Source: Brachyhypopomus gauderio
Taxonomy: Eukaryota; Chordata; Actinopteri; Gymnotiformes; Hypopomidae
Direction of reading: 5' to 3'
NCBI RefSeq assembly: GCF_052324685.1
Contig: NC_135225.1
Location: forward strand, 12,046,503 to 12,110,502
Length of the DNA stretch: 64,000 nt
Position numbers and translations under genes: made by a program. The notes below the pieces were generated by a model. It had not been told where the DNA came from, made no database searches, and saw nothing but the letters and a program-made list of their open reading frames with translations. Positions 22,428 to 51,166 of the stretch are shown piece after piece. Position 1 is the stretch's first letter. Every line of letters begins with the position of its first letter.

Positions 22428-22783
22428 TGGGAGGTATTTCCTGCCAATAATAAAACTAAAATGAAAACACTAAAATGAAAATGAAAATACCGTTTTGCCA
22501 TTTCTTTTTCCATACATGTGTGAAAATATTATGACAAAATTAAAAATAAAATGAAATCACTTAATTTGCAATTTAATTTTTCACTCGAGCACGGGTCATA
22601 TGTGACAAATATAAAATTAAAATTAAAAAGGAGGATTGGCGCTACCTGCTGGTGATTTTCTTTTTCATTTTCCACTTTTCATTTTCTTTTTCCACTTTTC
22701 ATTTTCGTTTTCAACTTCACCAGCATGCAAATACATGTAAATGAACAGTAGGCGGAGCTACAACTACAGAACCTCCCGCGAAA
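22428..22783. repeat. Left 356-bp terminal inverted repeat of element 1
   Basis: Matches the reverse complement of 33820-34175 almost base for base. The inner part holds AAAATGAAAA-type and TTTTCATTTTC-type runs and a CACTCGAGCACGGGTCATAT segment. The integrase start codon is 26 bp past its inner edge, so it may contain the promoter. Confidence 0.9.
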
Positions 22784-22808
22784 TCCAGAGAGGGCAGCAC
22801 ACGGCAAC

Positions 22809-25800
22809 ATGACTGACGTTTTACTAGAAACGGCAAATGAGATTGTGAGGTTGGCGAATTGCCAGGACGAAGATTATATATTACTTAGGTGTGAAGTTAT
22901 CTTAGACAGGCTTGGCGATATCGAAGCTTTCACAAACATGCAGGTAAATACTGTTGTATGGCGGAATCTACGTGAAGTGGTAGAACGCTTAAGGTCTGGA
23001 TTGGGGGCCATGGAAAACCGCCCAGTGCGAGGTCGGCCTAGGTTGGACGTTGACGAAGAGGCCATGATGACTTGCACGCGATACGGAATGACAGCTCAGA
23101 AAATTGCGGGACTCTTCGACGTTTCAGAGAGAACAGTAAGGCGAAGGATGGAAGAGTTTGGATTGAGGTAAGGAAGAATAAATTTAATATCCTACTAACC
23201 TAAAACTAATAGAACTACACGTGGTTTATTTATGTTTGCACGCTAAATTGCTTTTCACCATAGCTAATACAACTACCACCAAAGCAGTTAAGCTATTCTA
23301 CTGTATGAGAATCGACTCAAAATGTTAAGTGTCTGTAATTTGTCTGCTTGATATATTAGCTCAGTGTTTCCCAACCCTGCTACTGGAAGCGCAAAGCCTT
23401 GACAATTTTAGTAAATTCCCTGCTTTAACACTTCCAGTACTACTCTGAAAGGGTTTGCTAATGAGCTGATTAGTTGAATCAGGTGTGCACATAAAAATGT
23501 GCAGGGCAGGTTTCGAGACAATAACAAAGTCCAATGGTAGTAAATGTTTCCACATTTTATTTTATCTTTAGAGTGTCTGACTTTTACTCCGACATCAGTG
23601 ATGCAGACCTTGACCACACTGTTGAAGAAATCCAGAGATTGTACCCTAACTCAGGATACAGAATGCTTCATGGCCATCTAAGGTCAAGAGGGCTTCGAGT
23701 CCAGAGTAAATATTAAAAGAACAGCTTATACATAATTGTACATAAGATGCATATGTAATTAAATCATTTAAATCGGGCACTGTGCATTGTATACATGTTT
23801 TACTCCTGACTTGGAAAAAACGAATCCATTGATCAATCAAAATTTTTACAACTGTTGTAGTTGCAAAGCAGCTTCACAGAAATCCAATAAAACAAAAATG
23901 TAAAAAAACACAATAAATAATATAATATTCATTACAAATTAACCTAATTAAGAACATATGCATCAACTACTCTTGTGTTTCAGCCTCAAGAGTACGATGC
24001 TCTCTTCGAAGAGTGGACCCTGAAGGGTCACGAATAAGGGCCCTTTCAGCACCTGTGGTAAGGCGTCGGCAGTACACTGTGCCCTGCCCCAATGCCATGT
24101 GGCATATTGATGGCAATCATAAACTTATCAGGTACTCGGATAAATATATTTATTCAAGAAATCTTTTATTTACCATTTTTAAAAATACACTAATTTGGTT
24201 ATTTACATATAATCTTCATTCAGATGGAGGATAGTACTTCACGGCGGCATCGATGGTTTCACCCGGCTGATAGTTTATCTTTCAGCTTCAACCAACAACC
24301 AGGCATGCACTGTGCTTAACTACTTCATTGCCGCTGTCAATGAATATGGCTTACCGTCTCGTGTGCGCTCAGACAAAGGAGGTGAGAACATTGGTGTAGC
24401 TGAGTTCATGGTGGCAAACAGAGGAGAGGGCAGAAATTCCCACATCACAGGGAGAAGTGTACACAATCAGAGGTATGTTTACAACTTATAACTAGTGTAC
24501 ACTTAAATACCCCTATGTCTAATCACATCTTATCTGTTTAACATAAAACAGCACATGAATATTGTTAATATTCAGTAGCAGGTGTTTAGCAGTAAGAAAA
24601 AAATTTATTGAGCATTGGATCCCCTAAGGAGATCTTAAGCTTAATGTTGAAAACCTCTAAGCTCTTGTCCAAATGTATAGGCTTGGCTTTAAGCATAAAG
24701 CCCCTGGGAACAGATTTTGCAATATTGACTTCTTTTGTACAATACTTTTTGGGTGTGGTTCTGGGAAGTTTAAATAGAAAGCTCAACGCAAAATATGAAG
24801 GACACTCCTCAAATCTCTCTGTGAGAATGGTGTGGTCTAATATTCTAATGAGTGTGTGACTGACCCAGGGGCTTTAAGTTATCTGGCTAAGAAGAGAAAC
24901 CCTGCTTTGTGAAATTCCCTCAGGACTGGCACTGTGAACCATTGGTCCAGGACGTCAAACTAAGTTTTGAGTGGTATGCACACAGCCTTGAAGATTTATT
25001 TGCCCTCTTATAACATTTTTAGTTAAACACTAAGACCATGCAAATTGGCTTTCTAGTTTTATGTTGTGATAAATTAGGTAAACTGTTAAAACTATGCATG
25101 GATGTGCCCTCCAGTTTGTCAGCTGGTTATTTAAGAGTCATTACTTGTTTTTGTTTCAGAATTGAAAGGCTCTGGAGAGATGTATATGAGCATGTCCTGG
25201 ACATGTTCTATCACATCTTTTACAATCTAGAGATAGAGGAACAACTCAATCCTGACTCTGACATCCACATCTTTGCCCTCCACTGGAGTTTCCTTCCTCA
25301 CCTGCAAAGGCACCTAGCCTTCTTCAAGAATGCGTGGAACCACCACGGGCTCAGAACAGAAGGCAATCAGTCTCCTATTCAGCTTTGGATGGGACACAGA
25401 ACACAAATGAATGAACATATTCAGGTAAATACTCAAATGATGCAAATGAGAAATCTTTCAATCAGGGATGGGGAACCAACACAGTTTGGTGAATTCCACG
25501 CTGTAACACACTAAACATGCGCAAATCCAGCACTGAGTTCCCCACTGCTACTTTAAATATGAGTACATTTAAACAGTATTAGATAATATTAGGGCTGCAC
25601 ATTATATCATTTCAGCATTATTGCAGTGTGAATATGCACAGTAGTCACATTGCAGGATGTACAATGTCTCATGCAATGTAAAATGTATTTGCTTGATACA
25701 AAAGAAAAGGCAGATATCTGCCCAACAATGTTAATTTTACTCCACTGGATACACCGAGTGCATTATTCATGACATGTTGGATAACTGATTTCTGGTGAAA

Positions 25801-26178
25801 ATTACTTAATTTTAATTGTCTAAATTTTGAAATGTATTAATATTGTCTATATTGCAAGAATAATTAGCAGTGTAATTTTTCACTGAAAATTGTGCAGCTC
25901 TAAATAATACTCATGTTTTCAAAGTTAATCTTTCTTTATCATTATGTAAAGTATAATATTTTTGGGAATTGTAATGATAGGTGGATGAAAATTACGGAAT
26001 TGACTGGGATGGCCCAACAAGACATACGGAAGAGGGAATTGAAGTTCCAACAGTCCAGCTACCACGTGAACTTACAGCAGAAGAAGTGGAATCTTTGCCA
26101 AATCCCCATGTTCCCTTTTCAGATGCAGTAGCCACATATTGCAACACAGTAAACCAAATTAATCAATTACTACGTTGA
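22809..26178 (+). CDS. IS3-like DDE integrase/transposase of element 1, intact (450 aa)
   Basis: Six exons join in phase without a stop: 22809-23167, 23572-23705, 23984-24131, 24224-24472, 25160-25424 and 25981-26178. Residues ~85-120 form a helix-turn-helix ([20 protein letters not shown]). Residues ~130-170 resemble the IS3/retroviral HTH-linker ([18 protein letters not shown], then [13 protein letters not shown]). The rve/RNase H-like core has D207 (WHIDGNHK), D264 (RSDKGGEN) and E299 (NQRIERLW), with 34 residues between the last two, as expected for D,D(35)E enzymes; [14 protein letters not shown] lies between. The C-terminal part is family-specific. Predicted role: DNA cleavage and strand transfer at the element ends, in the nucleus. 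The start ATG lies just inside the left inverted repeat. All catalytic residues are present, so it could be active. The closest known group is IS3EU-type transposases, from memory. Confidence 0.88.
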
Positions 26179-26316
26179 CTAAGTGAGGCCTATATTGGGA
26201 CTAGCTTGCTTGGTGTGCAGCAAGCTGAAATGTTTTACAATTTTGAAAATGTCTGAAAATGTTTTATAATTCTGTAGTTGTCAATCTTTCTGTTGAACCA
26301 GTAGTAAGTGTACTTA

Positions 26317-26611
26317 TGTCACGGTACGGCGGGCCCCTACTGGTCGCCCCCGTCTACAGCAGCAGCTTGTCCTGTGGGTGTGGTGTTGTGTTCGTCCCTC
26401 AGGTGGGCGGAGCCCGCGATCCGTCTCACCTGAGGGTCGTTTGTTCGTCTATACATGTCTTGTCTTTGTACCAGTTGACCGCTGGTTATTATATCCTTAA
26501 TTCGGATCAGTTCACGGGTTTTGGTTTGCACACTTTACATATTAAACCATCCTTTTTCCCTGAGACTTGGCGTGATCGCTTCATTGATTTTTGCTCACCC
26601 TACCCGTCACA
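26317..26611 (+). mobile_element. Solo LTR, family 3, inside element 1
   Basis: A 295-bp unit starts TGTCACGGTACGGCGGGCCC and ends CTACCCGTCACA. It is flanked by the perfect 5-bp duplication ACTTA (26312-26316 and 26612-26616). It lies after the integrase stop codon. Confidence 0.88.
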
Positions 26612-27257: not shown

Positions 27258-29499
27258 TTAAATCAAACCAAATCCATATTCAATGGTTGAAACAGCAGCT
27301 TGGAGGTCCTTCCGGAAGTCCTCAAAGGCTCTGTAATGTACAGGGAGCTTGATTGTCTCTCTACATGTATATGCAGTTGGCATTGGGACGCTTGTTGAGA
27401 CCTCCACATACAGATGCTGCGGAAGCGAAGTCCAGCCCACCCAAAACTGGACCAGCTTCTTCAACTCCTCTGATGTGCCTGTTAAAATACATGAAAATGT
27501 ACTGAGGAATAAGAAACTTTATTTAAAGATTTCTGCAGTGAATCCAAGTGACCTACCATGTTCAATGTATTGGCGGAAGAAGCCAGTCACTTTGCAAGAA
27601 TCTTCAAGTTGGTAGTCCATGTCTTCATCACTATCAGGTGCTGGCCAAATTGTTTTGTCCAGGATCATCTATACACTTCATTCACTTGCCTACGCTCAGC
27701 TTCAGTCAGTTTTCCAGGACCCTGAAGCTATGATCAATCAGATAAAACATATCTGATTTAAGCCTAACAGGACAGTGTACAAATTCTAAGTGCCAACAGT
27801 GGACAATTACCATTCTAACAAGACTTATCACACTCACAACAGACACAATTTCCACAATGTCAGTATCAGGACAGTCATCTAATTCCACAATCACTGGTTC
27901 ATCCTGCTCCCCAGTCATCAGCCTGAACATTGAGCGACTTAGTCCTGTGATCAAGGGTCCTCCATGTATGAAAGAGTGCCCAATCATGCGGCCAACAGCA
28001 CGAAATAGATCGCTGTCCAGCAGGATCCGTGATGTGGATGGCACCAGGTGATCTTCTTGTCCAATAAAAAACAGCGTTCTGCCACAACCGTCTAAAAAAA
28101 TAAAATCATGAGTCTGATTTATCAAAAACAAACATCTGAAAATGAAAACTGCATAGAAATTGTAGTCTTTTGCAAATAAATAACTCTCAATCAATCCTTG
28201 GTTCATATCACATGCATGGGCCAAACTGGAGACCTCTGTACTAGATTGCAATGAGTTTGCATACGTTCTTTCTTAAGTTAATAGTATACACTACTTAGTT
28301 TTAAACTATCCTTTTACTAAATCTGGTTGCACCACAAATCTTTATGTTGCGTCTTAATTAGTCACCATTACCTAATGCACATTCTACCACCGAGATAAAT
28401 TTAAATGAGTTAATGCATTTTTTAAAATATAAAATGGTAAAATGCCTCACTTTCAACACCTGATATGTGTTCTGTTATATTGTGAATAAAATATGGGTCT
28501 ATGAGATTTGCAAATGATTGCATTCCATTTTTTTTACATTTTACACAGTGTATTTTTGGAATTGGGGTTGTATTAAAAGGAAAAAACTAAAACCAAAAAA
28601 AAAAAAACCAAAACACTTCAACACTCACCAAGATTTAGGTCAAACCCAAATTGAACTCTGGACATCACAAAAGACAGGAAATGACGTACAACACCATCTC
28701 CAATGGCTGAATCACCTAAGGGAGCAAAAGAAATTAAAACACTTATAGTCAATTATGCTTGCATGTGCACAAACCAGAGAGTTAATCAAAATTTATTTAA
28801 ATGCATGTTGCTGGACAACCACAGACAACAGATCCCATGACTACAGTTTAAAAAGAGAAGCCACAAGAAACTGGCTAGGCTTTCATACTATCACAAACTC
28901 ACAGTTGCTAAACTAAAGGAAAAATAGTTTAAGAGATACAGTGAACTGATACAGATTTTCTTCCAGAGACACCTTAATAAAAAAAGTGAAAAAACAGACT
29001 GTACATACCCCTGAGGATGACTGAAAATGGACGGGCCCAGCAAATTTCATGCCTTTTATAAAATGTCAGTATTTCTCTTTCTCTGTCTTGAGTATCTCTG
29101 GTGAAATCGATCCTTGCCACTAGCTCAGGTTGCTCTTCAGCTTCCTGAAGTAGGTTTCTCCGAAACTTATAAGCAGCAAGATTCAACTCTGGTTCAAGCT
29201 TCCAATCTAAGAAAATACAAATTTGAAGTGAAATTATTATTCATACACACATGCACGCAATAAGCAAAACTCCAGATACTTCTCATTTTTAAGTCCTAAC
29301 CATGAGTCTTCACAGCGCTCCTGCCTCTGAAATAATGTTTAATGATTATGCAGAACCACATTTGAAAGGTATTAAGTGTTTTGTGTGTTAATCTATTCTG
29401 GACAACAAAATACTGTGTATGCTTGGATTGGATTAATTATCTGTTTTTTCCCACCTATTCTGACTATAAAAGCTCCTCCCCAAACAAGTGAACAGCACT

Positions 29500-29777
29500 C
29501 ATACATGCTCAACATGGGAAAGACTAGAAGGTACAAAACCCTTTCCAAGGAGTTGGGCCTGTCTGTTTCTACCATTGGGAGCATCATCTGGAAGTGAAAG
29601 GCTTATGGAACTACTGTTAACCTTCCAAGGCCTTTCAAAGTTTCCTCCCGTGCCAAGGCCAGGCTTGACCCAAGGACAAGGAGGGAGCTCCGGGCAGATG
29701 TCATGGCGGTGGGGACATTGGTTACCATAAATACCATAAGTAATGTACTCCATCGCAATGGTCTCCGTTCCAGGCAA
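29500..29777 (+). mobile_element. Tc1-like transposase N-terminal fragment
   Basis: Plus-strand frames encode the Tc1 paired-like DNA-binding start: MGKTRRYKTLSKELGLSVST, a frameshift, then RPFKVSSRAKARLDPRTRRE and ISNVLHRNGLRSR. It stops abruptly where the zinc-finger exon of the HECT gene begins on the other strand and has replaced that exon's splice donor. The catalytic region is missing. Confidence 0.7.
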
Positions 29778-30230
29778 GTTGCACTTGTCTACATGGTCCT
29801 GTATTTCAGCATGGCAGAACACTTCACTGCAGTAAATGCACTGTATAGTCATCCGAGTTCCATGTGCTGCTGTAAACATACTCTAAAAGTATTGAAAAAC
29901 AAGACACATTAAAGTCATATTACTGAATTATTTGAAATGATTTGTTGAGCTAAACAATCATCACAAGCACAAAAAGACAATTCCATATGATTTGATTATT
30001 TATGTAATTACATTACTCTTCTTTTTTTTAAAAATATAATTTTATTTATTTCAAAGCAGGAATAACAATAAAACAATACAAAACAATTCAATAGAAACAT
30101 TGGCAGTGAGGTCCACCTCCTGCTTCACATCTTTATCTTTTCTCCCAAATTAACAAACAAAATGTAAGTTAAACAATACAAGTAAATACATTACTCTTCT
30201 AAATGAAAACTAAATTGAAATAACCAGAGG

Positions 30231-31446
30231 TGGGACCAAGTCAGTGTTTTGCAAGTCTCAAGTAAGTCCAAGTCTTTATACCTCAAGTCCCGAGTCAAGT
30301 CTCAAGCAAAGACACTCAAGTCAAGTCAAGTCTCGAGTCAAGACAGGCAATAGTCAAGTCAAGTCCCAAGTCTGAAACTTGGAATTTCAAGTCCTTTCGA
30401 GTCTTTTTTTTTTTTTTTACCAATGTTGCAGGTATATTTTAAATGTAAATAATAGACATGCGTTCTTTTTTAAATCTGTATTCTCCTCAAATCTTGATAA
30501 AACATGTGCAAACACGAAGTATAAAAAAAATTAAAATTACACCTCTTTATTGCACAGTTCAATTTGTTAAACTTAGCTGCAAAAATATTCATACTTTAAA
30601 CTACAATTTTCCAGAAATAAATATTCTATGAAAAAGTCATAAGTAGAACTCCATGTTCAAATAAAAAGTGCTGATATTTTCACAGTACAATACAAAGAAC
30701 CATAACAGCATTTTCCCTCTCTTCTCTTATCTGGTTTCTTGGAGAACATGTGTGAGTGACACAAGACAAACAAATATAAGAACTGAACAATTAACAGGAA
30801 TCTGCAACTTTAGACATTTCAGTAAACTATTCTGCATTGCATTTGCTGGCCAAAAGTCTGTATGTCATTTGTGCACGATGAATAATGTCCCCATAGCTGA
30901 AAACTCGCTCCACTTTTGTCAATATATTTTTTTCTCGACGTAGATGTCTTCAAATACACAATCCATGCTGAGATAGAACTGGATATTATGATGGTGACAG
31001 AGAGAGGCTTTCTTCCCCGAATTCAGATACAGAACCCAGGGTTGCCAACTCTCACGCATTGAGCGTGAGACACACGCATTTGACCGTCTTCACACGCTCT
31101 CACGCCACACATCCGATTTCTCAGCGGTGGTTGTGCTGCAGCTCATGCACACACACGTACAGAGTGTGGAAAAGCAGAGGACTGGTCTGCGTCAGAAGGA
31201 CGGAAATGAAATTAATGGGGCGCACTTTATAAATATTAATATGCGTTTTAAAATTTAGATTTGGGGTAAAAAAAAATCAAGTCTTTGCAAGTAAACAGGT
31301 TCAAGTCCAATTCAAGTCCCAAGTTATTGGTGTAAAAGTCCAAGTCAAGTCTAAGTCTCTGAATATTTTTTCAAGTCAAGTCAAAAGTCTTAATATTAAT
31401 GACTCGAGTCTGACTCGAGTCCAAGTCATGTGACTCGAGTCCCCAT
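30231..31446. mobile_element. Non-autonomous DNA element rich in CAAGTC repeats
   Basis: The left end AGAGGTGGGACCAAGTC and right end GTGACTCGAGTCCCCA have the inverted-end pattern of a common fish element whose right end normally continues CCTCTG; here that end is cut short. Both subterminal regions are filled with CAAGTCAAGTC and GACTCGAGTC units, probably transposase-binding sites. The middle (about 31037-31230) includes an unrelated GC-richer block with CTCACGC repeats. No transposase remains. Confidence 0.6.
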
Positions 31447-33025
31447 AACTCTTCACATATAATTGTGCAGCAAAATGTGCTTTGACAATTACCACAGCCT
31501 TTAAATGCTGATTCATTTCAAATTTACCTTATCCATGCTGAGATCTCTCTGAAGAGGTCTAACATAGATGGTTTCCATTTGAATTCCATAAGCCTCAAGA
31601 TATTTTGGAGTGTATCCCTCTGCTGGACAGGGAATGATCTCCAAATTCTTGCTCCTTGTAGCGCCATAGGGTCTCAGCAACTCAAAACCTCCTCCCTCTT
31701 TCAACTTTGGAAACTCCTTCTGAAGTTGTGCTTCAAATTCACTTGCAGTGCAGTATTTATCTGTCAAAAAAATTTTGTTAGTTAGAAAAACAATACAAAT
31801 GATTTTACCACAACAACCCATTACTCACATCAACAACATCTAGTTAATTGAAGTAATTAGCTTAGTAGTTAATAGTGAATTACTTTTAGCCTAATTAAGG
31901 GTTACCCACAGCTATAGTAAACAATGTATTTGTGCACAAAGTTTTGATTTGCATGAGACAACAAATAGTACTTACTGATTACGCATTGTGTAGGTGTCTT
32001 AAGACAACTAAATGAACCACGGCAAATTACAATACTTCTGCACTTGAATAAAAATAGGTGTATTTTAGTACTTATGATACTCAAATATTCTTTATCAAGC
32101 ATGCACCTGTTTTACGTAATTACATAAGTTTCATTATTTATCCAATCCACTTGGCTACTACAAAAAACTACAGCCCAAAGTGAATATGCTGTCAAATTCA
32201 GCATAGTCACTAATCATTAAATATTTAAATCATTAAATCATTAAATCTCTCTCTACCAGTGTTATCTGGGCAAGCTAACACATCATATAGTTTAAAGATC
32301 ATATGTAGAATACAAAACGTCCACCACACAATATGACATTGCACCAGTTAGTTCCACCATCAGCTGAGCATCAGCTTCCATTACTTAGGCCTTCTTTCAG
32401 GTTTTAATGATCTATATATTACAAAGAAAATCCATAACACATAAATGACAAAAATATAATTTGGGTTATAGATGGCACCCCTGCTCTTCACATTTTGGTG
32501 GTTTCTCTGCTCCCAACACACCTGATCCAACTAATCAGCTCATTAACATGTCCTTTCAGGGGACATGCAGGGGAAGAGTTACCAAATTGTGCAGAGCAGG
32601 GGTGCTTCCAGGACCAGGGTTGAGAAACACTGCCCTAGACAAGTTAGCTTACTGACGAAGCTTACCAAGGAAAACAATCTTCCGCTCTCCCAGCCCTGCC
32701 TGCTCAAGTTCGGCTCGGTGACTGATCTTAGGTACTTCACAGTCACGCTGTCCATTCAAACAAAAAAAATTATGAGTGTAAGTGGGTTTCTTCATGGACT
32801 TGGGTGGGGTCGGCCTTCTCAAAATTCCAACCGGTTTGACATTCGAGCGGGCATATGGAGAAAACAGTCTGCTCACTTCACCTAATACAAAATCAAACAC
32901 ACAAAATAGGCTAAAGATTTTGTAATTACAGTACACTGGTCTGCAAAATGAATTTTACTGGCTCAGTTTCTCTCACAACTGGTCCAGAGACAAAGTTTTC
33001 TGGCTTGTACAATCAAGGTGTCTAA

Positions 33026-33232
33026 TAATGATATATGCATTTACGGTATTTGGCAGACACCCTTATCCAGAGTGACTTACATTTTTATCTCAATTTTTAT
33101 ACAAGTGAGCAGTTGAGGGTTAAGGGCCTTGCTCAGGGGCACTTCAGTCATGGCCTCAGGTCTGAGGATTGAACCCACAACCCTCCGGTCACAAGACCAG
33201 TTCCCTAACCACCAGGCCATGACTGCCCTGTG
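33026..33232. repeat. Common fish interspersed repeat, class uncertain
   Basis: Contains TTTGGCAGACACCCTTATCC, AGAGTGACTTACATTTTTAT and GGGCCTTGCTCAGGGGC. I recall this consensus from many teleost genomes but cannot assign it safely to a SINE or MITE. No terminal duplication is read. Confidence 0.55.
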
Positions 33233-33819
33233 TTTGCAATTACTCAAAGAATGAGTAAACACGTTGATGGCAATAATAGTAATAGTAGAAAAATTTGGGA
33301 TTAAATAGGTTAAATAAAGTGTGTTGGGAGAATGAAAAATTGCAGAGGAAAGCACTAAAACATGACTGCTAAACTGGCTAAAACTTGCTATAAAACCTTT
33401 AATCCAAACTAATTTTACTTAATGTAATGTTAGTGTGGTTTTATGTAATGTAATGTCATCATTAACATTATTACACTAAATGATAATCCTATACACTAAA
33501 ACGTGGATGCTTGGGAAAGGGCAGCTTTGTTAATAGAGTAGCTAGTGCTAGCTACTTTAGCTAACTAACAAGCGACTTACTTTGAACAGTCTCTCTCGCC
33601 ACTGAAGCGGCTCGAGATTCTTATACATGAGAGGTTCCCGGACGTGGTTGAAAGTGAGGCTGCGATTCACTAGCAACGACCCTCGGTTCACTAGTAAACG
33701 CTGCCTGCTGTAACCCAGCGCCTTGCCCTCGCTCGAGCACCGCTGCGGCCTCCCGCAGTAGCTCTGCAACCTACTTCGCCATTAGTACCTAAGCAAAGAC
33801 GTACCAGCAGCATTCGTGG

Positions 33820-34175
33820 TTTCGCGGGAGGTTCTGTAGTTGTAGCTCCGCCTACTGTTCATTTACATGTATTTGCATGCTGGTGAAGTTGAAAACGAAA
33901 ATGAAAAGTGGAAAAAGAAAATGAAAAGTGGAAAATGAAAAAGAAAATCACCAGCAGGTAGCGCCAATCCTCCTTTTAAATTTTAATTTTATATTTGTCA
34001 CATATGACCCGTGCTCGAGTGAAAAATTAAATTGCAAATTAAGTGATTTCATTTTATTTTTAATTTTGTCATAATATTTTCACACATGTATGGAAAAAGA
34101 AATGGCAAAACGGTATTTTCATTTTCATTTTAGTGTTTTCATTTTAGTTTTATTATTGGCAGGAAATACCTCCCA
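33820..34175. repeat. Right 356-bp terminal inverted repeat of element 1
   Basis: Inverted match of 22428-22783. The HECT gene start codon (33780-33782, minus strand) lies 37 bp past its inner edge, mirroring the integrase gene at the other end. Confidence 0.9.
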
Positions 34176-34443
34176 TAAACACACACCCAGATACACCCCC
34201 CAATGTACATATACGGCCACGGACTACGTTAACACACAACCAAAGGGAGGGGTCCGGGGCTGTAGCATGAGACATAGATGGTAATTTTGCCTCCTTTGAA
34301 AAGCTAATACAGCAATATAATATTCCTAGATCACATTTTTACAGATATTTGTAGTTTTGAAATTTTGTATCTTCAAATTTGGACTGTTTTCTACGGAGCC
34401 CCTGAAGGGACATGGTGTAATTTTTTTTTCAGGTAAAAAAGTG

Positions 34444-34725
34444 GTGAGCACCAGATACTATCAGGTGAGCACCAGATACTATGTGGTGAGCACCAAATAC
34501 TATCAGGTGAGCACCAGATGCTATGTGGTGAGCACCAGATACTATCAGGTGAGCACCAGATACTATGTGGTGAGCACCAGATACTATCAGGTGAGCACCA
34601 GATACTATGTGGTGAGCACCAGCTACTATCAGGTGAGCACCAGATACTATCAGGTGAGCACCAGATACTATGTGGTGAGCACCAGATACTATCAGGTGAG
34701 CACCAGATACTATGTGGTGAGCACC
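34444..34725 (+). repeat. 21-bp minisatellite in the left inverted repeat of element 2
   Basis: Thirteen full units of GTGAGCACCAGATACTATCA/G plus a partial one. Two variants, ending TATCAG or TATGTG, mostly alternate. The right array carries the same units in inverted orientation. Each unit contains GTGAGC, identical to a strong splice donor. Confidence 0.95.
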
Positions 34726-34781
34726 TTCACATACTTCTACTCTGTGCACAGGCTGTGCTCAGAATCTTCCATCATTCCATC

Positions 34782-37700
34782 ATGGAAGAAGACATTTATG
34801 ACTTTTTAGAGTCCCGACAGGTGGCACAACAACAAATAGAGCGACTTAAAGATGACAAGGTAAGCTTACTGTATTTGTTTAGATAGCTATAAAAACCTTA
34901 ATATGTTACCAATTTATTACTTTCAAAAATATAAATGTAGGTTGGCCTTGCTAGATAATGTTAGCTAGCTAGCTAACTAGCTACCTTAGCCAGCTAGAAG
35001 GGTTGCGATAACGTTACGTTAGGCTTGGTGAAAGTAGCCTAAATATTAGTGCCCAACAGTTTTTTTGCTGCAAAAAGAAACCTCCTGTTATGTGCATTTC
35101 TCATCATAGATGGCTAGAGTTAGCTAGCGAGCTGACGCTAGCTAATGCTAGCCGACGCTAGCCAACGTTAACTCTGGGCTAATAGCTAAAGTTAGATGAA
35201 CTTTCCGTTTACTTTTGCCACACTGAAAGAAATAAGTTTAGTGAAATCCAGTGTAGTTCTTGTGGATTGTGGTTCGAGAGAATAGTGTTTTGCAGTAAAG
35301 AAAACATGCAACATCAGAACTAGTAAAGAAGGACAGTTTTCCTTGTGTTATTTATTAAGCAGACATCCCAAGTCTCCCGGAAGCTGCGGGAGTCTCCCGC
35401 ATTTCGGTAGTGTCTCCCTGATACCCGCGAGTCACATATAATCTCCCGGAATTCAGAACGAGTGACCCACACAAACACGCACACAGGCGACAGACTTTAT
35501 TTTCTCTAATCACGAGTGGGAAGGAGAGAGAATTAAACTCCGGGGGGGTTTAGCTTTAAGATCTGGCACAGAAACCTCTCTTTAAAACTCGAACCTTTAG
35601 AACAATGTTTTTTAAAGTCTTTTTTAACCCTCAATGGGTCCTTGGGGTCCCACGGCAGTTTCTATGGCCACTACCATGTTGTTAATAAAACTGCAACATT
35701 GATCCTCTGTGACATTGTTAAGGAACCATTTTTAAATATTGTTGCATATAAAATATTTTAATAACTGTTGACATAAAATTTTACCGGCACATTTTCATCG
35801 GGGGTGCGATATGCATCCCCAAAAACGTTATTTACTACCTTGTTATTACATTGATATTAACATATATTAATTCTAATTATTAATATAAATTTTGATGTAC
35901 ATATATTTTGGCACATTTTGGGTTTTAGTTGGACCTTTTTAAAAGTCAATCATTTAGTTTTTTTTTTTTTTACCTTTCAACTGTTACATAATAAATAACA
36001 AAATGGCTAGGTGTCCGACAGCTCAAGCTCTTAGACTGATTATGCAAGCAGATACACACAGTGATGAAGATAGTGTTATTGAAGAAGATGCCAATAGTGA
36101 AGATGGCGATTATTTGCCTGGAGCTGGTCCTGACTCAGATACGGAAGTTCAAGTGTCTGAGGAATCTGATGAGTCAGAAGATGCCACCTCGTCTGAGGAG
36201 CACCAGCTAAATTAACCTACTACTACACTGACTGAAAGAAGAAGAGGTATCTCAAGAGGAGTTAGAGGAGGTAGGACCAGATCACGCCGTGGTTTTTGCC
36301 CGGGATGGGGCACACACAATACACCTAATGCAGCACAACCCACGGCTGTAGAGCTACCCTTTGGTGATACCAGTACGCTTACTAGTACCAGTACACCTCA
36401 GAAGACCAATGATGGATCCAATCCAACTTCTAGAGCTGGAGAAACAGGAAGCAAGAGACCAGCTAAAGTGAAGAGGACACAAGAACGTTGTTACCTGTGC
36501 CTGCGCGAGTGTGACAGGAAGACACGCAAGTTCTGTGATTGTGCTCTAGGCCTGCTTGTCCAGCACACTCTGTCAACACTTCAAATGTACTGTGTGAAAA
36601 ATGCTTATAATTTGGATATGTAATTTGATTAATCATTGAACAACATGTGCATTTGATTCGTTTTGCAATTTAATTTCGATAATGGAATTAAAATTATACT
36701 TACTTGGACTTTGTGCAGGGCAGTGGGGATCTCTTCCCACAATCCTGACCCCTTTAAGTGCACTTTCTCAATGCATAGACTGTGCATGTTTCACACAGTC
36801 AGTTAATAAACATTGTTTTTCCTTCATTTTAATAAACTTTTGCTTGTTACCATTGATTTATATATGCCAACTAAAAGGGGTGCAATTTGCACCCCAAGGA
36901 CCGGGAATGCAACTTTCTCACAAGGACCTGTTGAGGGTTAAATGAAATATTTGTTTTCATTGCAGATTGACATGAATGTGATCTCTGTCATGATGGATGA
37001 AGAGCTTGGAGAATACTTCCCCAGATATGGAGATCATATTGCAGTGAGAGCTTTTTGTCGTCAAAAGATGGCTGCTTGCAGTTCAACTCAGGGAGAATCA
37101 AGTGCAAAGTCTTCAGTTCTGCAAAGATTAAAAGCAAAGCTTAAGAAAGGCAGAAAGGGGTGTGACCAGCATTTATCAGATAGATCATCTGCCCTTGGCA
37201 ACAAGTATGCATTTAAGGACAGCAGGCGCCTGGAAATGGGGTGGTTGCATTTCCAGGGTGGACAGTATCGGCAGGTACGGACAAAAAACGGTGGAGGAAC
37301 AAGACACCTAAGCTGTCAGAAAAAAACTTCGGTTGAAGAATTACTTTGTGTTGGCAAAGATTTGTTTTTCCCCAAAGGCATCTCATCCAAAGGCCCTACA
37401 GATAAATTTGTTTTTGAAATTCGTGATTTTAGTCAAAGTACCATACCACCAGAAACCACATTGTGTCAGATATACGAAGAAAGCAAACTACGGATGGTGC
37501 GCCTATACCTTTGTTCAAAACAAGTAGATACCGAGGAGGGGCCATCCCTTGTCATTTCTTCAGATACAGATTCTGACTTTCAGCCTGATGAGTCTACAAA
37601 GAAGAAGAAGAGAAAGGTATGCAGATGGTCCTTTTTCCTTAACTTCAGGTACAAAATTGGGGCACAAATTATCTTAGGATCTTTTGTGGAAAGTAATGAG

Positions 37701-39702
37701 ATGTTGTTGTAGTACATATTTTTAAAAACTGGTTTGATACTGCAAAATGCTTATAACTGATGTATTTTTCAAAAAGGCCTGTCCATTCAAAAGGAAACCA
37801 AAACCAGGGACGGAGACTTGTGTTCATGAAAATGAAAAGCTTGATGGTCATGAAAGCTTTTCTTCAGATCATGAAATACATGAATCAGAACATGAAGAGC
37901 AAAATGAGGTAAATGCTGCATAATGATACTCAATTACATGCCTGGGTCAGCCATGTATGCACCTTAAAGTAGCAGAATTCACTAATTAGAAGGCCTGTCT
38001 GACTATTTTTGGACATATAGTATTCTGTGTTTAAACAGTTCCTCTGTGACAGTAAGTAATGGAATAACATGCTGTTATCAGGATAAAACGTAGATAAAGT
38101 CCAAAAATACCACGTGAAAATAGGGCTACAAATCAATAGTTTGCTAACTGAGCTTAGTTTTATTTCATTTTGAGACTTAAGTGGCTTATTCTAGTGTTTT
38201 TCTTTTTCCTTTTTCCCTATATATCTTTGCAGTTTTTAACTAGCTCACCAGTAACCCTGGCTATCTACACATCATTTGAAGACCCGGAGATCCAGTTTGG
38301 CGAAGTATGTGATGACAACTGTAGTGATCTTCTTTCCACAATCTCATGGCATTCCCAAAATGAGGTATGCATGTTATCAGCTTTCATTTCAGACACATTC
38401 TGTACAGTGTTTTCATTTGTAATGTTGGTGTTAAGGCAGTCTGTGTTTGAATTTTGATTTATTCTCCTTCACGTACCAACAGTTTAGCCAGGATAATGGT
38501 GATTGTGTATTTCAATGATTTCCCATAAACACTAACTCACCACTTTATTAGATACTGTACTTGTATCAGCTTTCATAATTTTTTATACAGTCATTTATAA
38601 GTTATACTATAGCTTTACAGTTACAAACTGTGACACATTTGTTATCATACACAATTTGTCAGCCCCCTTTACGCCATTCATCATCATATTATTTTGGTGG
38701 TAGACCATTATCATAATGTTAGTGTCAGAAGTGACACTGCCCATTTCAATACCAGTATTAACATCAAACACACAGGCTCAAAAAGAAGGTCCAGCTCGAT
38801 GTTTAGGTCAACATTATACTGTAAAAATCAACATTATACTGATGAATATGTGACAACAATAGTCATTCACTTACATCCTCAGAATGGTCTTTTAACAAGT
38901 ATTGACTGAGTACTGTTTGAATACACTTTCAATCATCTGATTCTTCTGGATGTAATAATATAATATTATATTATGGTTGGAAAATTAACACAGTTGGCAA
39001 AGATTTACATGGGCATATTTGTTTCTGGGATTTTACATAATGTTTATTATATTTGTCTTGCAGGAGGCAATCCTGAATGATCAACCTCTTGCTGTTGCGT
39101 CATCAGCACATCCACTGGCAGCCATGGATGAACCTGCAAGTGTGAAAGAGGTCTGGAAAGTTAAGATAAGACGAGTAAATGTAATTCAAGATATGTTAGA
39201 TATTTTTATGGACCCTAAAGTTCTCGATGTAACCCTACGATTTGAGTTTGTCAGTGAGAAGGCATTTGATGATGATGGCGTTTCAAGGGAGGCCTACACA
39301 GCCTTTTGGGAGGAGTTCCTGGAGCAGTGTGAAGGAGAGGAGGAGCGAGTGCCTGAGTCAAAGCAGGCAACAAACAGGAAAGTAGCACAGATTCTGAAAC
39401 CATCCAAGGAGTTCCTGAACCAGCATGAGCAAGTGGTCCTAAATCACTTGATGCGTTATGTGCGAAGTGTAGACCAGAGGAGACTTGAGAGTTTTCTGCG
39501 ATTCTGCACAGGCTCAAATGTAATGTGCAAAGACAAAATTGAAGTAACTTTCAACAATTTGGCAGGTCTTAGTCGCAGGCCCGTAGCGCACACATGTGGT
39601 GCTGTTCTTGAGGTGCCATGCACATATAATTCATATCCTGAATTCCGTATGGAATTTGACAACATTCTCTCTGCTAATTGCTTTGCAATGGATATATTGT
39701 AG
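34782..39702 (+). CDS. HECT-type E3 ubiquitin ligase-like protein of element 2 (543 aa, open frame)
   Basis: Five exons, all phase 0 and stop-free: 34782-34859, 36966-37616, 37777-37908, 38233-38364 and 39064-39702. Residues 1-26 (MEEDIYDFLESRQ...) are helical; 27-243 form an unrecognised region with LQRLKAKLKKGRKG and KFVFEIRDFS, ending in a nuclear-signal-like STKKKKRK; 244-331 are acidic and His-rich. The HECT domain covers about 360-543: RFEFVSEKAFDDDGVSREAY, then RRPVAHTCGAVLEVP with the presumed thioester cysteine C509, 35 residues from the end, as in known HECT C-lobes. The HECT part is short (about 185 residues against the usual ~350): after EGEEERVP it jumps directly to ESKQATNRKVAQIL, as if roughly 130 residues were lost in frame. 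It may therefore be inactive or regulatory. The start lies just past the left inverted repeat. Intron 1 holds a piggyBac remnant. Confidence 0.78.
35362..35475. repeat. Short interspersed repeat with CCCGGAAGCTGCGGGAG core
   Basis: Contains AAGTCTCCCGGAAGCTGCGG and TCTCCCGCATTTCGGTAGTG, a block I recall as a dispersed fish repeat. Boundaries and class are not determined. Confidence 0.35.
35628..36937 (+). mobile_element. Internally deleted piggyBac transposon
   Basis: A 1310-bp unit flanked by TTAA (35624-35627 and 36938-36941), with inverted ends CCCTCAATGGGTCC and GGACCTGTTGAGGG. Both ends are typical of piggyBac-like elements. A frame from ATG 36003 encodes an acidic N-terminus (MARCPTAQALRLIMQADTHS, then SDEDS and EDANSEDGDYLPG) and stops at 36213-36215. 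Further on a piece encodes RTQERCYLCLRECDRKTRKF, the Cys-rich C-terminal finger of the transposase, ending near 36621. The whole DDE core is missing. It lies in intron 1 of the HECT gene. Confidence 0.88.
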
Positions 39703-40729: not shown

Positions 40730-40803
40730 GGTCGTACTATTCTGTACTATGACTATGTTTTAAAATTTAAAAAGTTTAAAATTAAGTTAATTGTTCAGTT
40801 GTA

Positions 40804-40913
<110 letters not shown>

Positions 40914-41099
40914 TGTAAAAAAAAAAAAGTCATAAAAAAACGGTAACATGTCCGGCAGCAAAAGTTGCCAAACAGTTACCGTAAAATTACAGTAAAATAC
41001 CACACATAATTCAACAATGAATTACTGTAAAATTACAGATTTTCCCTGTATTTATTCTTTGTAATTTCACAGCCAAATTTGAGTAAAATTACAAATTTT

Positions 41100-46960: not shown

Positions 46961-46994
46961 CTCACATCACATTCTTTGCAATGTTGTCCATAAC

Positions 46995-47290
46995 GATCTG
47001 TGATAGTTATAAAGAAACACCCCTCAAAAACGGGAAGGAACATTTACCTGACCAATTTTAATGTTGCTTTGTGTTTCAGGTTTGAAAAGTGCTGGAATTT
47101 AGGCTAAAGTACTTGAAAATGCTTGAAACTGAAACTACTTCGTTTCACAACTGTCTGACTAAACAGTTCTCCTGTATTACGTTAACAAATACGAGCCTCT
47201 TGTAATTCCAGGACGAATCATGAGAGAACGGCGTTTTGAAAATAAACAACCACTAAATAATGTGATAAAAAACGCCATGAACAGATTAAA
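46995..47290 (-). mobile_element. Inverted partial copy of the hAT element at 44377-45972
   Basis: The stretch is the reverse complement of about 45500-45760, sharing AAACACCCCTCAAAAACGGG, AATACGAGCCTCTTGTAATT and TTAATGTTGCTTTGTGTTTC, with scattered differences. Ends not resolved. The following ~300 bp may belong to the same element. Confidence 0.65.
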
Positions 47291-47721
47291 ATAAACTGGC
47301 TAAAACACGTTTGAAACCAAAACTACTATAACACAACGTGTCAGACAACAACTTGTCGTCAGAATGCCACTCATAATAAAATAATTAAACACTCCCGGCA
47401 AAGCAGCGATTTTTGAAAAAAAATAAAACTAAGACGTACCTTCAGTTGATATTGATCACAGACACTTGGCGTGAACTGGTGCTTCTGTGCTTCAGTGCTT
47501 CAGTCGGGCTGTCTTTACCTGCGATTCCGTGAATAACTGAACGTAACGTCTCCAGGCACCTGGCGCTCAAATTCAAACTAGTGATTCTCGGCATTCATTG
47601 GCTGAACAGAACAGGCACCCACGATTCTGTCCAATCACCACACAGAACTGTTTGCCGATCTGTTTCCTGATGGATGAATGTATGGATGGGTCGATCTCTC
47701 TCTCTCTCTCTCTCTCTCTCT

Positions 47722-48066
47722 GGCTGTTTTCGAAATAGTCTACTACATACTACTGGCATACTGATCGAGCCCCAAATCAGTATGTCGTATTCAGTATGTG
47801 ACCAAAATGAAATTTTCCAGTACGCGAAACATACCCGGATGACTTACTACTTCCGCAAAATATTCCAGTACGCGAACAGAGCTATCTTCGTGGTGTACTG
47901 CATCCCATCATGCAACGCTACGTTCACGTGACCCCGTAGTGTGCTTTGCTTTTGTCGCATACTGGAAACTGTACTGCATACTACTACGAGGACCAGTATG
48001 CAGTATTCAGTATATACCGAGTCCAGTATGCAGTATCCAGTATGTAGTAATCTATTTCGAACACAG

Positions 48067-48068
<2 letters not shown>
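47722..48068. mobile_element. MITE with GGCTGT...ACAGCC ends in a (TC)n site
   Basis: The left end GGCTGTTTTCGAAATAG and right end CTATTTCGAACACAGCC are inverted. The inner sequence repeats AGTATGCAGTATCCAGTATG-like units. It split a TC microsatellite (47695-47721 and 48069-48097), so the target duplication cannot be measured. Confidence 0.75.
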
Positions 48069-48100
<32 letters not shown>

Positions 48101-49109
48101 ATGCCTTATATCTTTGCTCCTTCTCACGACAAGCCCTTGATTGCCCGGGATTGAGGATTGAGGGACCACATATTTTATATTATTCACTTGCTTGAGCAGA
48201 GTGGAGCAGTATTGCGGTCTAAACTTGTTGCTTTAAATGTCATTTCAAATAAAAGGCTATTGTTCAGTACTTGGTGTATGTGATTCAATTTACAGCTGGT
48301 TTGGTAGCAGAGTTATTAATGTATATTTAGAGAATTGGAAATGGGAAATTTAACATAATATTTTACTTCAAATCTTAATTCACTATAATTCCAGCCTTGT
48401 TAGGCTGCTGTTTTTGGTTAAATATAATTTCTTTGATAACATGGAATTTTAATATGCCATGAATTTCCTGTTTGAAAATGGAAAATTACTGTGAAGTTAG
48501 AAAAGGCATTGTTCTGTGTTTTTACACTGAAAACTGCATTTTTACACTGATAACTACTAAATTAAAACTCAAGACCCTTAAAAATATATACAATCCTGTT
48601 ATAAAACAAGAAATTCTTGTAATTTAAATTTACAGACTTTGACTGTATATTTAAAGGAGTTTTCTTTAAAAAAGTAATTTTCCTGTATTTTACAGGTATA
48701 TTCTCTTATTATGAAAAAGACAGAAAAATACTGTATTCATTTACAGTAAATATCTGTTAAAAAAATGTTTTTTTTACAGTGTATACACATATATAGATAG
48801 ATGGATGCAATTTCTGCTTGAATTTATTTTAAAGCGCACAGGGTGCTGAATGTTAAATCACATTTTTACTAGACCCACTACATTTCATTTTATTGCATAC
48901 TCAAGAATAAACACATACTGTTTGTAGTGTGCCTTTTTTGTTTCATGTTTTAAAACATTTAATTCAATTCAAAAACAGATTTAATTTATTCCTGGAAATT
49001 TGTATGACTATGTAATGTTTACATGTCAGTTTTATTTACATGCTATTAAAGACTCATGTTTTGCAGTCACTGTCCATGTCCAATGTTAATGTTGAAACCA
49101 AACTCAAAG

Positions 49110-50645
49110 TCACAGGGAGGCTCTTATTTCGTTCCTCAAGTGTATGTATAAATCCAGTGCTTGGAAGGAGTCATTTGGGAAAGACATCTGTGATTCTGCC
49201 ATGGTAATATTGCAGAGCTCGTAAACATCAGGGTCACATGGTACTGTTGATCGAAATGTACAGTCACTCTTGCACAGGTGAAGGTCGGCTTCATCTACTG
49301 GAAACAGAAAGTTTTCAGTGCTGTACAGCTCTGGCATCAAGTACATGACAATTGGGCGCCCGCTAGGAACATTGTCGTTTTTGGATGGTCTGATAACATG
49401 TGAATTCCATACTGTCATGGTCTCATCAAGTTCATCCTACAATAGATAAAGAAGCAAAATAATTACCAAAAAGGAACACCACTTAGACATGGAGAGACTG
49501 AGCTTTACACTAACTAATTACACAGTATAAACTTAATCATATTTTTTTCTTTCTTAAAAGCTGTAACACAAGCCTATGAGAACAGTGTTATCATAAAATC
49601 ATATGAATCACAAAAACTTCATTCTTTAGATAGAATAGAATCATAAAACTTCATTCTTTAGATTACAATTACATATTCTATTTTAGCAATAGATAATGTT
49701 TATGGGCAGCAGGATGAGAGCAATTTATTTTATCATTAGCAATGAGTTTTCACATTGAACAAATATGTAAATAATAATTATTACCTGGATAATTCCCATG
49801 AAACAAAATTGAAGAACACTTTTATCCAGGAAACATCCATCAAACAGGCCATTGTCCTTAAGATCAGTGAACAAAGAGATAAAGAATTCCATTGATTCTC
49901 TTCTTAGGATTCCCCACCAACTCTCTATTCGTTGATTGGCTGTGCTCGCCCCATCCAAGTAGCTGTCTATGGCATTTCCATCATTTCTGTTGCGGTGGAG
50001 AAACCTCTGAAAATCCCTGATTTGTACATTTTCTGTACCACGATCTCCTCTAGCTATTCTAGGGCAACCTCTGAGTCTCTCTACAGCTTCCATGTTGTAC
50101 CCTCCCACAATTTTTGGATTGCTGCTTGTAGTGAATGCATTCAACCAAATAATATTTCTAGAAAATCCATCAATGCATCCATTGATACAAATACCATAGG
50201 GCTTTAGTTTATCATAGGAATCAAAATGCCAGATGTAGTTTGGTCCTCTTGCAAAGTAGTTACGGCGATGGAGTCTCCGGGCTTTTCTGAGTTGAACTCC
50301 TCTTGGATCCAGAGCCTTTAGGATTAGCCGAACGTCTTCCTTCTTTACATGCAAACCATGTTCTTGACATTTGGCATGCATCCACCTGTAACCATGGAGC
50401 TGACCTGCACTTCTCAATTGTTGTTGAATAAACACGATAATATTGTCTATGTTGCTGTAGTTCTTTCGACGAAATAGACCCTTAGTCTTTAAAATGCGTT
50501 TTAAATGTCTCTCAGTTATGATGTATCCATGACGACTGGCAAGAATAAATGTTATGTCTTTATATTTTAGACCTAGCTGAAAGTACATTTCAATATGCTC
50601 ACCAATATCCATGCAGCTTGGGCAAAACTGCAAAGTAGTGCTCAT
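49110..50645 (-). CDS. IS3-like DDE integrase/transposase of element 2, intact (395 aa)
   Basis: Two exons, 50645-49785 (287 codons) and 49436-49110 (108 aa plus stop), joined across a GT-AG intron in phase 0. The start MSTTLQFCPSCMDIGEH has a CPSC pair; residues ~20-60 form a helix-turn-helix (LGLKYKDITFILA and ITERHLKRILK); residues ~75-120 match the IS3-like linker (GYRWMHAKCQEHGLHVKKED). The rve core has D142 (WHFDSYDK), D201 (RGDRGTEN) and E241 (NQRIESWW), with 39 residues between the last two, and CIDGFSRNIIWL between. It is clearly related to the element 1 enzyme but diverged, with fewer introns. Predicted role: cleavage and transfer of element 2 ends. The start codon lies a few bases inside the right-hand minisatellite, so those repeats are in its promoter/leader region. 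Confidence 0.88.
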
Positions 50646-50656
50646 CCGAGTGCAAG

Positions 50657-51005
50657 AAAATGCTCACCACATAGTATCTGGTGCTCACCACATAGTATCT
50701 GGTGCTCACCACATAGTATCTGGTGCTCACCTGATAGTACCTGGTGCTCACCACATAGTATCTGGTGCTCACCTGATAGTATCTGGTGCTCACCACATAG
50801 TATCTGGTGCTCACCTGATAGTATCTGGTGCTCACCACATAGTATCTGGTGCTCACCTGATAGTATCTGGTGCTCACCACATAGTATCTGGTGCTCACCT
50901 GATAGTATCTGGTGCTCACCTGATAGTATCTGGTGCTCACCACATAGTATCTGTTGCTCACCACATAGTATCTGGTGCTCACCTGATAGTATCTGGTGCT
51001 CACCA
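50657..51005 (-). repeat. 21-bp minisatellite in the right inverted repeat of element 2
   Basis: About 16 units, inverted relative to the left array, with the same two alternating variants (CTGATAG and CACATAG on the plus strand). Longer than the left array by about three units, so copy number has changed separately in the two arms. Confidence 0.95.
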
Positions 51006-51166
51006 CTTTTTTACCTGAAAAAAAAATTACACCATGTCCCTTCAGGGGCTCCGTAGTTTTCCATTATCTCCATCAACCTCTTTGTTAGAGTCAATCTTTA
51101 AATGTAAATTAAATAATGAACAATTTATTAGTATCATTTATTAATTGCTTAACTTACTTAATTCTA

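What the first reader, a model, noticed from the sequence alone, without database searches (positions are those of the whole stretch)
22428..51056. Two unrelated-ended giant transposons share one plan: IS3-like integrase plus HECT ubiquitin ligase, converging
Both elements carry exactly two recognisable own genes: a D,D,E integrase starting just inside one inverted repeat and a multi-exon HECT ligase gene starting just inside the other. The terminal repeats share no obvious sequence, the integrases are well diverged, and exon structures differ (six versus two exons; nine versus five). Sharing of the ligase despite this divergence suggests it is a real functional component, for instance modifying host repair, chromatin or the transposase itself. 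I do not know of a description of this pairing, but cannot search.
Basis: partly seen in the sequence, partly recalled or inferred. Interest (0 to 1): 0.92.

Follow-up and report, generated by a model that had tools for sequence, protein, structure and literature searches.

The report
Fish jumping genes carrying ubiquitin ligases
Two neighbouring jumping genes in an electric fish each carry, besides the enzyme that moves them, a gene for a HECT ubiquitin ligase (an enzyme that tags other proteins), and the same two-gene plan recurs in dozens of related elements, which suggests that these transposons bring their own tool for manipulating host proteins.

Summary
Window 22426-34177 (E1) and 34392-51055 (E2) are two DNA transposons with both ends, each with a D,D,E integrase and a convergent multi-exon HECT gene; the host is the electric fish Brachyhypopomus gauderio. 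The ends are not unrelated: tips read TATGG.. and TACGG.., and 6-bp target duplications flank four of five two-ended E2 copies and one of two E1 copies (7 bp in the window's E1). These are published marks of the IS3EU superfamily. The pairing is systematic: outside the window, 64 of 120 transposon-type HECT loci lie within 20 kb of a listed integrase locus, 62 convergent; within 5 kb, 59 of 59. Random placement gave a mean of 2.8, maximum 8. Integrase and HECT segments diverge together between families (r = 0.88, n = 11). The HECT proteins keep the catalytic Cys, and the E2 type is predicted to fold as a HECT domain. Both HECT genes in the window are broken; longer frames exist in sister copies. 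44 of 121 listed integrase loci have no convergent HECT found. Best reading: a conserved accessory E3 ligase of animal IS3EU transposons, acting in trans; substrate unknown. I found no description in the library searched; Repbase could not be checked.

The parts
22426..22783 (+). E1 left terminal inverted repeat, 358 bp, tip TATGGGAGG; flanking target duplication AACACAC (7 bp)
22809..26178 (+). E1 integrase/transposase gene, 450 aa, six exons (22809-23167, 23572-23705, 23984-24131, 24224-24472, 25160-25424, 25981-26178), open, D,D,E present
   Evidence: rva_4 E 1.6e-30 on the fifth exon; exons 1-5 joined, exon 6 read from the same sequence
27261..33782 (-). E1 HECT ubiquitin ligase gene, damaged: early stop, and two coding pieces missing relative to the sister copy C81; C-lobe exon with catalytic Cys ends at 27261
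   Evidence: (C-lobe PF00632 29.5 bits, cut-off 23.9)
33820..34177 (-). E1 right terminal inverted repeat
34392..34725 (+). E2 left inverted end, tip TACGGAGCC, with 21-bp subterminal tandem repeats; target duplication GTTTTC
34782..39702 (+). E2 HECT gene, five exons (34782-34859, 36966-37616, about 37777-37908, 38233-38364, 39064-39702); 438 bp of the HECT domain deleted in frame
   Evidence: third exon start by eye
36003..36620 (+). two adjoining open frames inside E2 intron 1, apparently a separate nested element
   Evidence: no Pfam family over its cut-off; piggyBac-like by recall only
49110..50645 (-). E2 integrase/transposase gene, 395 aa, two exons (50645-49785, 49436-49110; junction by eye), open, D,D,E present
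   Evidence: 1169 relatives, 120 listed
50661..51055 (-). E2 right inverted end with subterminal repeats

Best explanation
E1 and E2 are two members of the IS3EU superfamily of cut-and-paste DNA transposons in Brachyhypopomus gauderio. Animal IS3EU elements of this kind have a two-gene plan: a D,D,E transposase from one end and a convergent HECT-type E3 ubiquitin ligase from the other. Shown: the anatomy, the 6-bp target duplications of most two-ended copies, the recurrence of the convergent pair in many families, the joint divergence of the two proteins within this genome, and the predicted HECT fold with its conserved catalytic cysteine. Inferred: the transposase binds the inverted ends and inserts the element with a 6-bp stagger. 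The ligase is made in trans, loads ubiquitin from a host E2 onto its cysteine, and passes it to a substrate chosen by its variable N-terminal part. I think the most likely substrate is a host factor that silences or restrains the element, so that the ligase is a counter-silencing or permissive factor (about 0.4). A ligase acting on the transposase itself, to limit or recycle it, is next (about 0.25).
For: Anatomy. Sister copies with the same ends and both genes: C81 for E1 and C7 for E2. Genome-wide pairing; of 120 transposon-type HECT clusters outside the window, 59 have a listed integrase within 5 kb, 59 of 59 convergent; random placement (within 20 kb) mean 2.8, maximum 8. Joint divergence: (r = 0.88, n = 11; r = 0.83, p = 0.002, n = 8 without L057, L058 and E2; the close pair L056/L028 stayed in). 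HECT identity: Pfam at E <= 1 in 43 of 45 chosen E2-type relatives (of 110 found) and 20 of 22 chosen E1-type relatives (of 42 found); Cys in the 90%-or-more columns of both alignments; model of 573 residues with the HECT part mostly above pLDDT 90; best PDB match the HUWE1 HECT domain, E 1.4e-12. Other species: consecutive locus tags for ligase and integrase in Channa striata and Scatophagus argus, and tags four numbers apart on one contig in Dunckerocampus (matched by eye).
Against: 44 of the 121 listed integrase clusters have no convergent HECT found (41 none, 3 divergent). Fifteen of these are copies of one family whose HECT would lie just outside the stretch I held, and the others were not searched with every HECT type. 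Of the transposon-type HECT loci, 56 of 120 have no listed integrase within 20 kb and 2 a divergent one, although the integrase list is truncated. Among E2 copies, C5 has no match to the HECT-domain exon, and L016 has an integrase and no HECT in the 9.9 kb held. Across nine cross-species pairs the two proteins do not co-diverge (r = -0.17); they do over the seven left without D. mawsoni and Sphaeramia (r = 0.77, p = 0.013). Within families, dN/dS of HECT pieces is mostly not clearly below 1. Nothing here shows ligase activity, expression or a substrate.
Confidence: 0.75

Rival explanations
1. Passenger capture: a host HECT gene was picked up independently by two elements and rides along without function.
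For: HECT genes are often damaged in individual copies, including both in the window and the C5 copy; within families dN/dS is loose; short derivatives with the same ends exist without an intact HECT.
Against: Same relative position and orientation in many families (59 of 59 within 5 kb); joint divergence with the integrase in this genome; catalytic residues kept between families at about 20-54% C-lobe identity; dN/dS 0.17 and 0.21 in the two usable between-family pairs (small numbers, the second with synonymous sites near saturation).
Confidence: 0.1
2. The HECT protein is a structural part of the transposition complex, or regulates the transposase itself by ubiquitination, rather than acting on host defence.
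For: Close and constant association with the transposase and co-divergence of the two would fit direct partnership.
Against: Near-invariant catalytic Cys argues against a purely structural role; nothing tested distinguishes transposase from host substrates.
Confidence: 0.25
3. Host HECT genes cluster by chance near, or attract, IS3EU insertions; the HECT genes are not part of the elements.
For: Public annotation presents the relatives as ordinary genes (uncharacterized proteins; one as a G2/M phase-specific E3 ligase-like protein).
Against: Both genes lie inside the same inverted ends in independent copies; chance expectation 0.41 and 0.33 pairs by density for the two HECT types and 2.8 by random placement, against 64 observed. 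Of the 58 other HECT clusters, 48 have no integrase within 20 kb, 9 a convergent one and 1 a same-strand one.
Confidence: 0.02

Closest known systems
IS3EU superfamily of eukaryotic DNA transposons (Repbase since 2013; PMC10045372, passages read)
   Same: TA..TA termini, usually 6-bp target duplications, IS3/IS481-like D,D,E transposase
   Different: The passages read describe no HECT gene; 'HECT' and 'ubiquitin' occur 0 times in that paper's main text
TET-positive IS3EU elements of rust fungi (PMC12730594, passages read)
   Same: TAYGG..CCRTA ends, 6-bp target duplications, transposase and a second enzyme gene in opposite orientations
   Different: There the opposite gene is an alpha-kinase with a TET/JBP gene between; here it is a HECT ligase; 'hect' and 'ubiqui' occur 0 times in that paper's main text
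Intons, IS3EU-derived complex fungal transposons (meeting report PMC3520738, one passage read)
   Same: IS3EU-derived elements that acquired conserved extra proteins; host-derived proteins of transposons suggested to regulate transposition
   Different: Fungal, five to six proteins; no HECT named in the passage (the paper's single 'hect' match is part of 'trophectoderm')
GingerRoot elements (as told in PMC10045372; the original paper is not held)
   Same: Grouped with IS3EU there, termini mostly TA..TA, 6-bp target duplications
   Different: Described from a clubmoss; gene content could not be read
Host HECT ligases HUWE1, TOM1, UBR5, AREL1
   Same: HECT fold and profile similarity
   Different: About 12-19% identity over the fold in the 50 matches listed

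Membership tests
IS3EU DNA transposons | TA..TA termini | tested here: met
   TATGG../..CCATA in E1 and TACGG../..CCGTA in E2, and in the sister copies with both ends
IS3EU DNA transposons | 6-bp target site duplication (usual, not universal) | tested here: met
   E2: 4 of 5 two-ended copies 6 bp, one none; E1: sister 6 bp, window copy 7 bp
IS3EU DNA transposons | IS3/IS481-like D,D,E transposase | tested here: met
   Pfam rva_4 over cut-off for both; for E2, NCBIfam IS3 E 6e-6 and IS481 E 1e-3, both far below their curated cut-offs; E1 not run against NCBIfam
IS3EU DNA transposons | groups with named IS3EU transposases in a tree | not testable with these tools
   No named IS3EU sequences (Repbase) were available
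HECT E3 ubiquitin ligase | HECT domain over curated cut-off | tested here: met
   P0001 31.9 bits and P0231 46.8 bits, cut-off 23.9; fold match for P0001. Window pieces: E2 24.1 bits, E1 C-lobe 29.5 bits
HECT E3 ubiquitin ligase | catalytic cysteine in the C-lobe | tested here: met
   HTC/TC in the 90%-or-more columns of 45 and 22 chosen relatives; present in both window C-lobes
HECT E3 ubiquitin ligase | ubiquitin transfer activity | not testable with these tools
   Needs an assay

The most novel reading that the evidence does not exclude
An ancient branch of animal IS3EU transposons evolved a standing partnership with its own ubiquitin ligase: autonomous families encode a catalytically active HECT enzyme that removes or reprograms a host restriction factor (silencing, repair or chromatin). 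That would make it the animal counterpart of the kinase and TET/JBP genes of fungal IS3EU. Many annotated fish HECT genes would then be transposon counter-defence genes.
Probability: 0.3. Interest if true: 0.87.

Novelty: new variant of a known kind. Interest (0 to 1): 0.66.

Why it matters
From general knowledge, cut-and-paste transposons usually need only a transposase. A conserved second gene that encodes a ubiquitin ligase would mean that these elements actively edit the host's protein machinery, which gives a direct handle on what restrains DNA transposons in vertebrates. It also bears on annotation: two sister copies in this genome and many fish relatives are listed as uncharacterized, HECT-domain or ligase-like proteins, which could inflate counts of host ubiquitin ligases and gene-family expansions.

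Tried and rejected
Viral or bacterial origin: the E2 integrase and the E2-type HECT alignment found no confirmed relative in IMG/VR, nor did that HECT alignment in GTDB genomes. Pfam HECT alone as a probe was too insensitive (neither window HECT gene is in its list), so element-specific probes were used. Cross-species co-divergence: by eye I noted nine other species whose HECT and integrase share a contig or close locus tags; eight plus this genome were used and Sarotherodon was left out. The nine pairs gave r = -0.17, p = 0.72. The D. mawsoni pair has distant locus tags and is probably not one element; dropping it and Sphaeramia gives r = 0.77, n = 7, p = 0.013; the four strictest (three with close tags plus this genome) give r = 0.72, p = 0.20. 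dN/dS: 14 comparisons, few changes, values from 0 to 1.9, three undefined; the L054/L057 C-lobe comparison may run into intron. A zinc finger in the E1-type protein was considered; Pfam gave only a weak C2HC match in 6 of 22. A search with a third HECT type (L028) did not complete, so that class is under-counted. Literature: searches. Of the papers that name IS3EU, one search gave two that also hold the letters 'hect'; PMC3520738 was checked (trophectoderm), PMC8965078 (water-buffalo methylation) was seen as a listing only. The two hits were checked by passages and are unrelated; the hits were seen as listings only. Only open-licence PubMed Central papers were searched and Repbase was not available. 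From my own recall I cannot exclude that Repbase entries mention a HECT gene.
Full report
WHAT IS THERE. The window lies in a 796.5-Mb genome at C15:12046503-12110502. A protein found from it, LOC143518217 of Brachyhypopomus gauderio, lies on a contig of exactly the length of C7, so the host is this electric fish (for its taxonomy). E1 spans 22426-34177 with 358-bp, fully complementary ends. E2 spans 34392-51055; its ends carry a 21-bp unit, 13.5 copies on the left. The tips are TATGGGAGG and TACGGAGCC, so both begin TA[T/C]GG. Target duplications are GTTTTC (6 bp) for E2 and AACACAC (7 bp) for E1 in the window; three other E2 copies and the E1 sister have 6 bp; the C5 copy of E2 has none.

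THE INTEGRASES. Pieces of both match Pfam rva_4. E1 reads as 450 aa in six exons, E2 as 395 aa in two, with the three acidic residues in each (the last E1 exon and the E2 junction read by eye). The E2 protein has 1169 relatives at E <= 0.001 among 2480 candidates; the 120 listed include fishes, Xenopus and a bullfrog, sea urchins, bivalves, beetles and a hemichordate. NCBIfam finds weak IS3 and IS481 similarity for E2 and three relatives, below the curated cut-offs.

THE HECT GENES. The E2 copy on C7 (L011) gives a 689-aa protein from five exons. The window's copy lacks 438 bp of its last exon, in frame, inside the HECT domain. The E1 sister on C81 encodes P0231, 650 aa; the window's E1 has an early stop and lacks two coding pieces. 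So neither window copy is likely to make a complete ligase, while longer reading frames exist elsewhere. P0001 (the annotated protein of the C7 copy) and P0231 pass Pfam's HECT cut-off. Of chosen relatives, 43 of 45 (from 110 found) and 20 of 22 (from 42 found) match HECT at E <= 1, and the catalytic Cys is in the 90%-or-more columns of both sets. The AlphaFold2 model of P0001 has mean pLDDT 77.6, with a low-confidence stretch (101-239) and the HECT part mostly above 90; its best PDB match is the HUWE1 HECT domain conjugated to ubiquitin, E 1.4e-12, TM 0.62 by target length and 0.44 by query length.

OTHER COPIES. The 20-base E2 tip occurs 17 times. Five copies have both ends. Of the three long ones, C7 has both genes whole; the window has both, with the HECT deletion; C5 has a frameshifted integrase and the front HECT exons, but no match to the HECT-domain exon. 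The two short ones (1.4-1.5 kb) keep only scraps of both. Of the stretches held at other tips, L015 has integrase and the HECT-domain exon, L016 an integrase and no HECT within 9.9 kb, L017 front HECT exons and no integrase, L018-L020 scraps, L014 nothing. The HECT-domain exon at 94% identity or more also occurs on C6 (the L015 copy) and C8. The E1 end has 41 matches (40 of 135 candidates scored), among them 11 facing pairs 0.8-2.0 kb apart, presumably short derivatives (interiors not read). Two further E1-like ends, on C126 and C26, precede members of an integrase family of 12 copies, of which 11 have a convergent HECT within 3 kb.

GENOME-WIDE PAIRING. I compared 121 integrase clusters (150 of 183 matches listed, 150 of 701 candidates scored) with HECT loci. 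With the Pfam HECT model, 22 of 82 HECT clusters lie within 20 kb of an integrase and 20 of the 22 are convergent (129 of 242 candidates scored). With the E1-type C-lobe (69 matches, all 82 candidates scored), 48 of 68 clusters lie within 20 kb, 48 of 48 convergent; 0.41 expected by density. With the E2-type HECT exon (79 matches, all 88 candidates scored), 18 of 54 lie within 20 kb: 15 convergent, 2 divergent, and 1 same-strand, which is the window's E2 HECT against the window's E1 integrase; 0.33 expected. Leaving out the window, 64 of 120 transposon-type HECT clusters have a listed integrase within 20 kb (62 convergent, 2 divergent) and 56 have none; within 5 kb 59 of 59 are convergent. Random placement on the same contigs, with contig lengths taken as the largest coordinate seen, gave a mean of 2.8 and a maximum of 8 in 1000 draws. 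Of the 58 other HECT clusters, 48 have no integrase within 20 kb, 9 a convergent one and 1 a same-strand one; of the nine, those that I read (for example L051, L053, L056) are a third transposon type.

FROM THE INTEGRASE SIDE. By these searches 72 of 121 integrase clusters have a convergent HECT within 20 kb, 4 a divergent one and 45 none. Among the 49 without, L027, L028, L029, L030 and L032 do have an adjacent convergent HECT of the third type in the DNA I held, which makes 77 of 121 and leaves 44. Fifteen of the 44 are copies of one family (L031 and kin), close to L028 in the integrase (about 89-94%); by the alignment of L031 to L028 their HECT would begin just outside the stretch held, so they are untested. 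The search that would settle them did not complete. I therefore do not claim that every family has a HECT.

JOINT DIVERGENCE. For 11 loci of distinct or near-distinct families, pairwise distances of an integrase segment and the HECT C-lobe correlate (r = 0.88, p = 0.0001); without L057, L058 and E2, r = 0.83, n = 8, p = 0.002, with the close pair L056/L028 still in. Across species, nine E2-type pairs give r = -0.17; seven give 0.77 (p = 0.013) after leaving out D. mawsoni, whose two genes have distant tags, and Sphaeramia. Pairs were chosen by eye by shared contig or close locus tags; only three (Channa, Scatophagus, Dunckerocampus) have consecutive or nearly consecutive tags. One predicted Dissostichus protein contains rva_4 and a HECT region below its cut-off, perhaps a gene-model artefact or rearrangement.

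SELECTION. Nei-Gojobori ratios between recent copies are loose and based on few changes; the two usable between-family values are 0.17 and 0.21, the latter with synonymous sites near saturation. The stronger argument is the conservation of the active site between families whose C-lobes share only about 20-54% of residues.

WHAT IT IS AND HOW IT WORKS. The ends, target duplications and transposase fit IS3EU as described in PMC10045372 (passages read), and TAYGG..CCRTA is the end pattern reported for TET-positive IS3EU of rust fungi, where a second gene, an alpha-kinase, also lies in the opposite orientation to the transposase (PMC12730594, passages read). So the plan 'transposase plus an opposed enzyme gene' has a precedent; the ligase is the new part. 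A meeting report mentions IS3EU-derived complex transposons and host-derived proteins that may regulate transposition (PMC3520738, one passage). I infer that the ligase is supplied in trans and acts enzymatically; counter-silencing of a host factor is my first guess and control of the transposase the second. No experiment supports either yet.

NOVELTY. Ten searches of the held open-licence library turned up no account of a HECT gene in IS3EU or another DNA transposon, judged from listings and a few passages (passages). Repbase itself, which lists IS3EU families, could not be read. I rate it a new variant of a known kind.

On going back over the calls I corrected the C5 copy (no HECT-domain exon), added L014 and L016-L020, the 41 + 3 split of unpaired integrases, the pair L056/L028 left in the n = 8 test, and the species pair left out. 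None of these changes the odds.

Noticed in passing
P0052, P0055-P0058, P0061-P0067: Predicted proteins, mostly of cichlids and mostly about 660-700 aa, carry a ubiquitin-specific protease (UCH) domain together with similarity to the E2-type HECT (two of them, P0052 and P0058, scanned, HECT over the cut-off in P0052 only): either a deubiquitinase-ligase fusion or a gene-model fusion. P0011 of Thunnus has a THAP domain plus HECT.
   Followed up: partly
window 36003-36620: Two adjoining open frames in intron 1 of the E2 HECT gene look like a separate nested element (piggyBac-like by recall; no Pfam family over its cut-off).
   Followed up: partly
window 30224-31445: About 1.2 kb present in the window's E1 but absent from its C81 sister: probably a later insertion.
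   Followed up: no
L011 around 8409: The right flank of this E2 copy continues from the target duplication into letters like the E2 tip, as if it had inserted at the end of another copy.
   Followed up: no
genome C14, C6, C2, C15, C9 and others: Eleven facing pairs of E1 ends 0.8-2.0 kb apart: presumably short non-autonomous derivatives that share the 358-bp ends.
   Followed up: partly
P0087: A Dissostichus eleginoides predicted protein contains rva_4 and a HECT region below its cut-off.
   Followed up: partly
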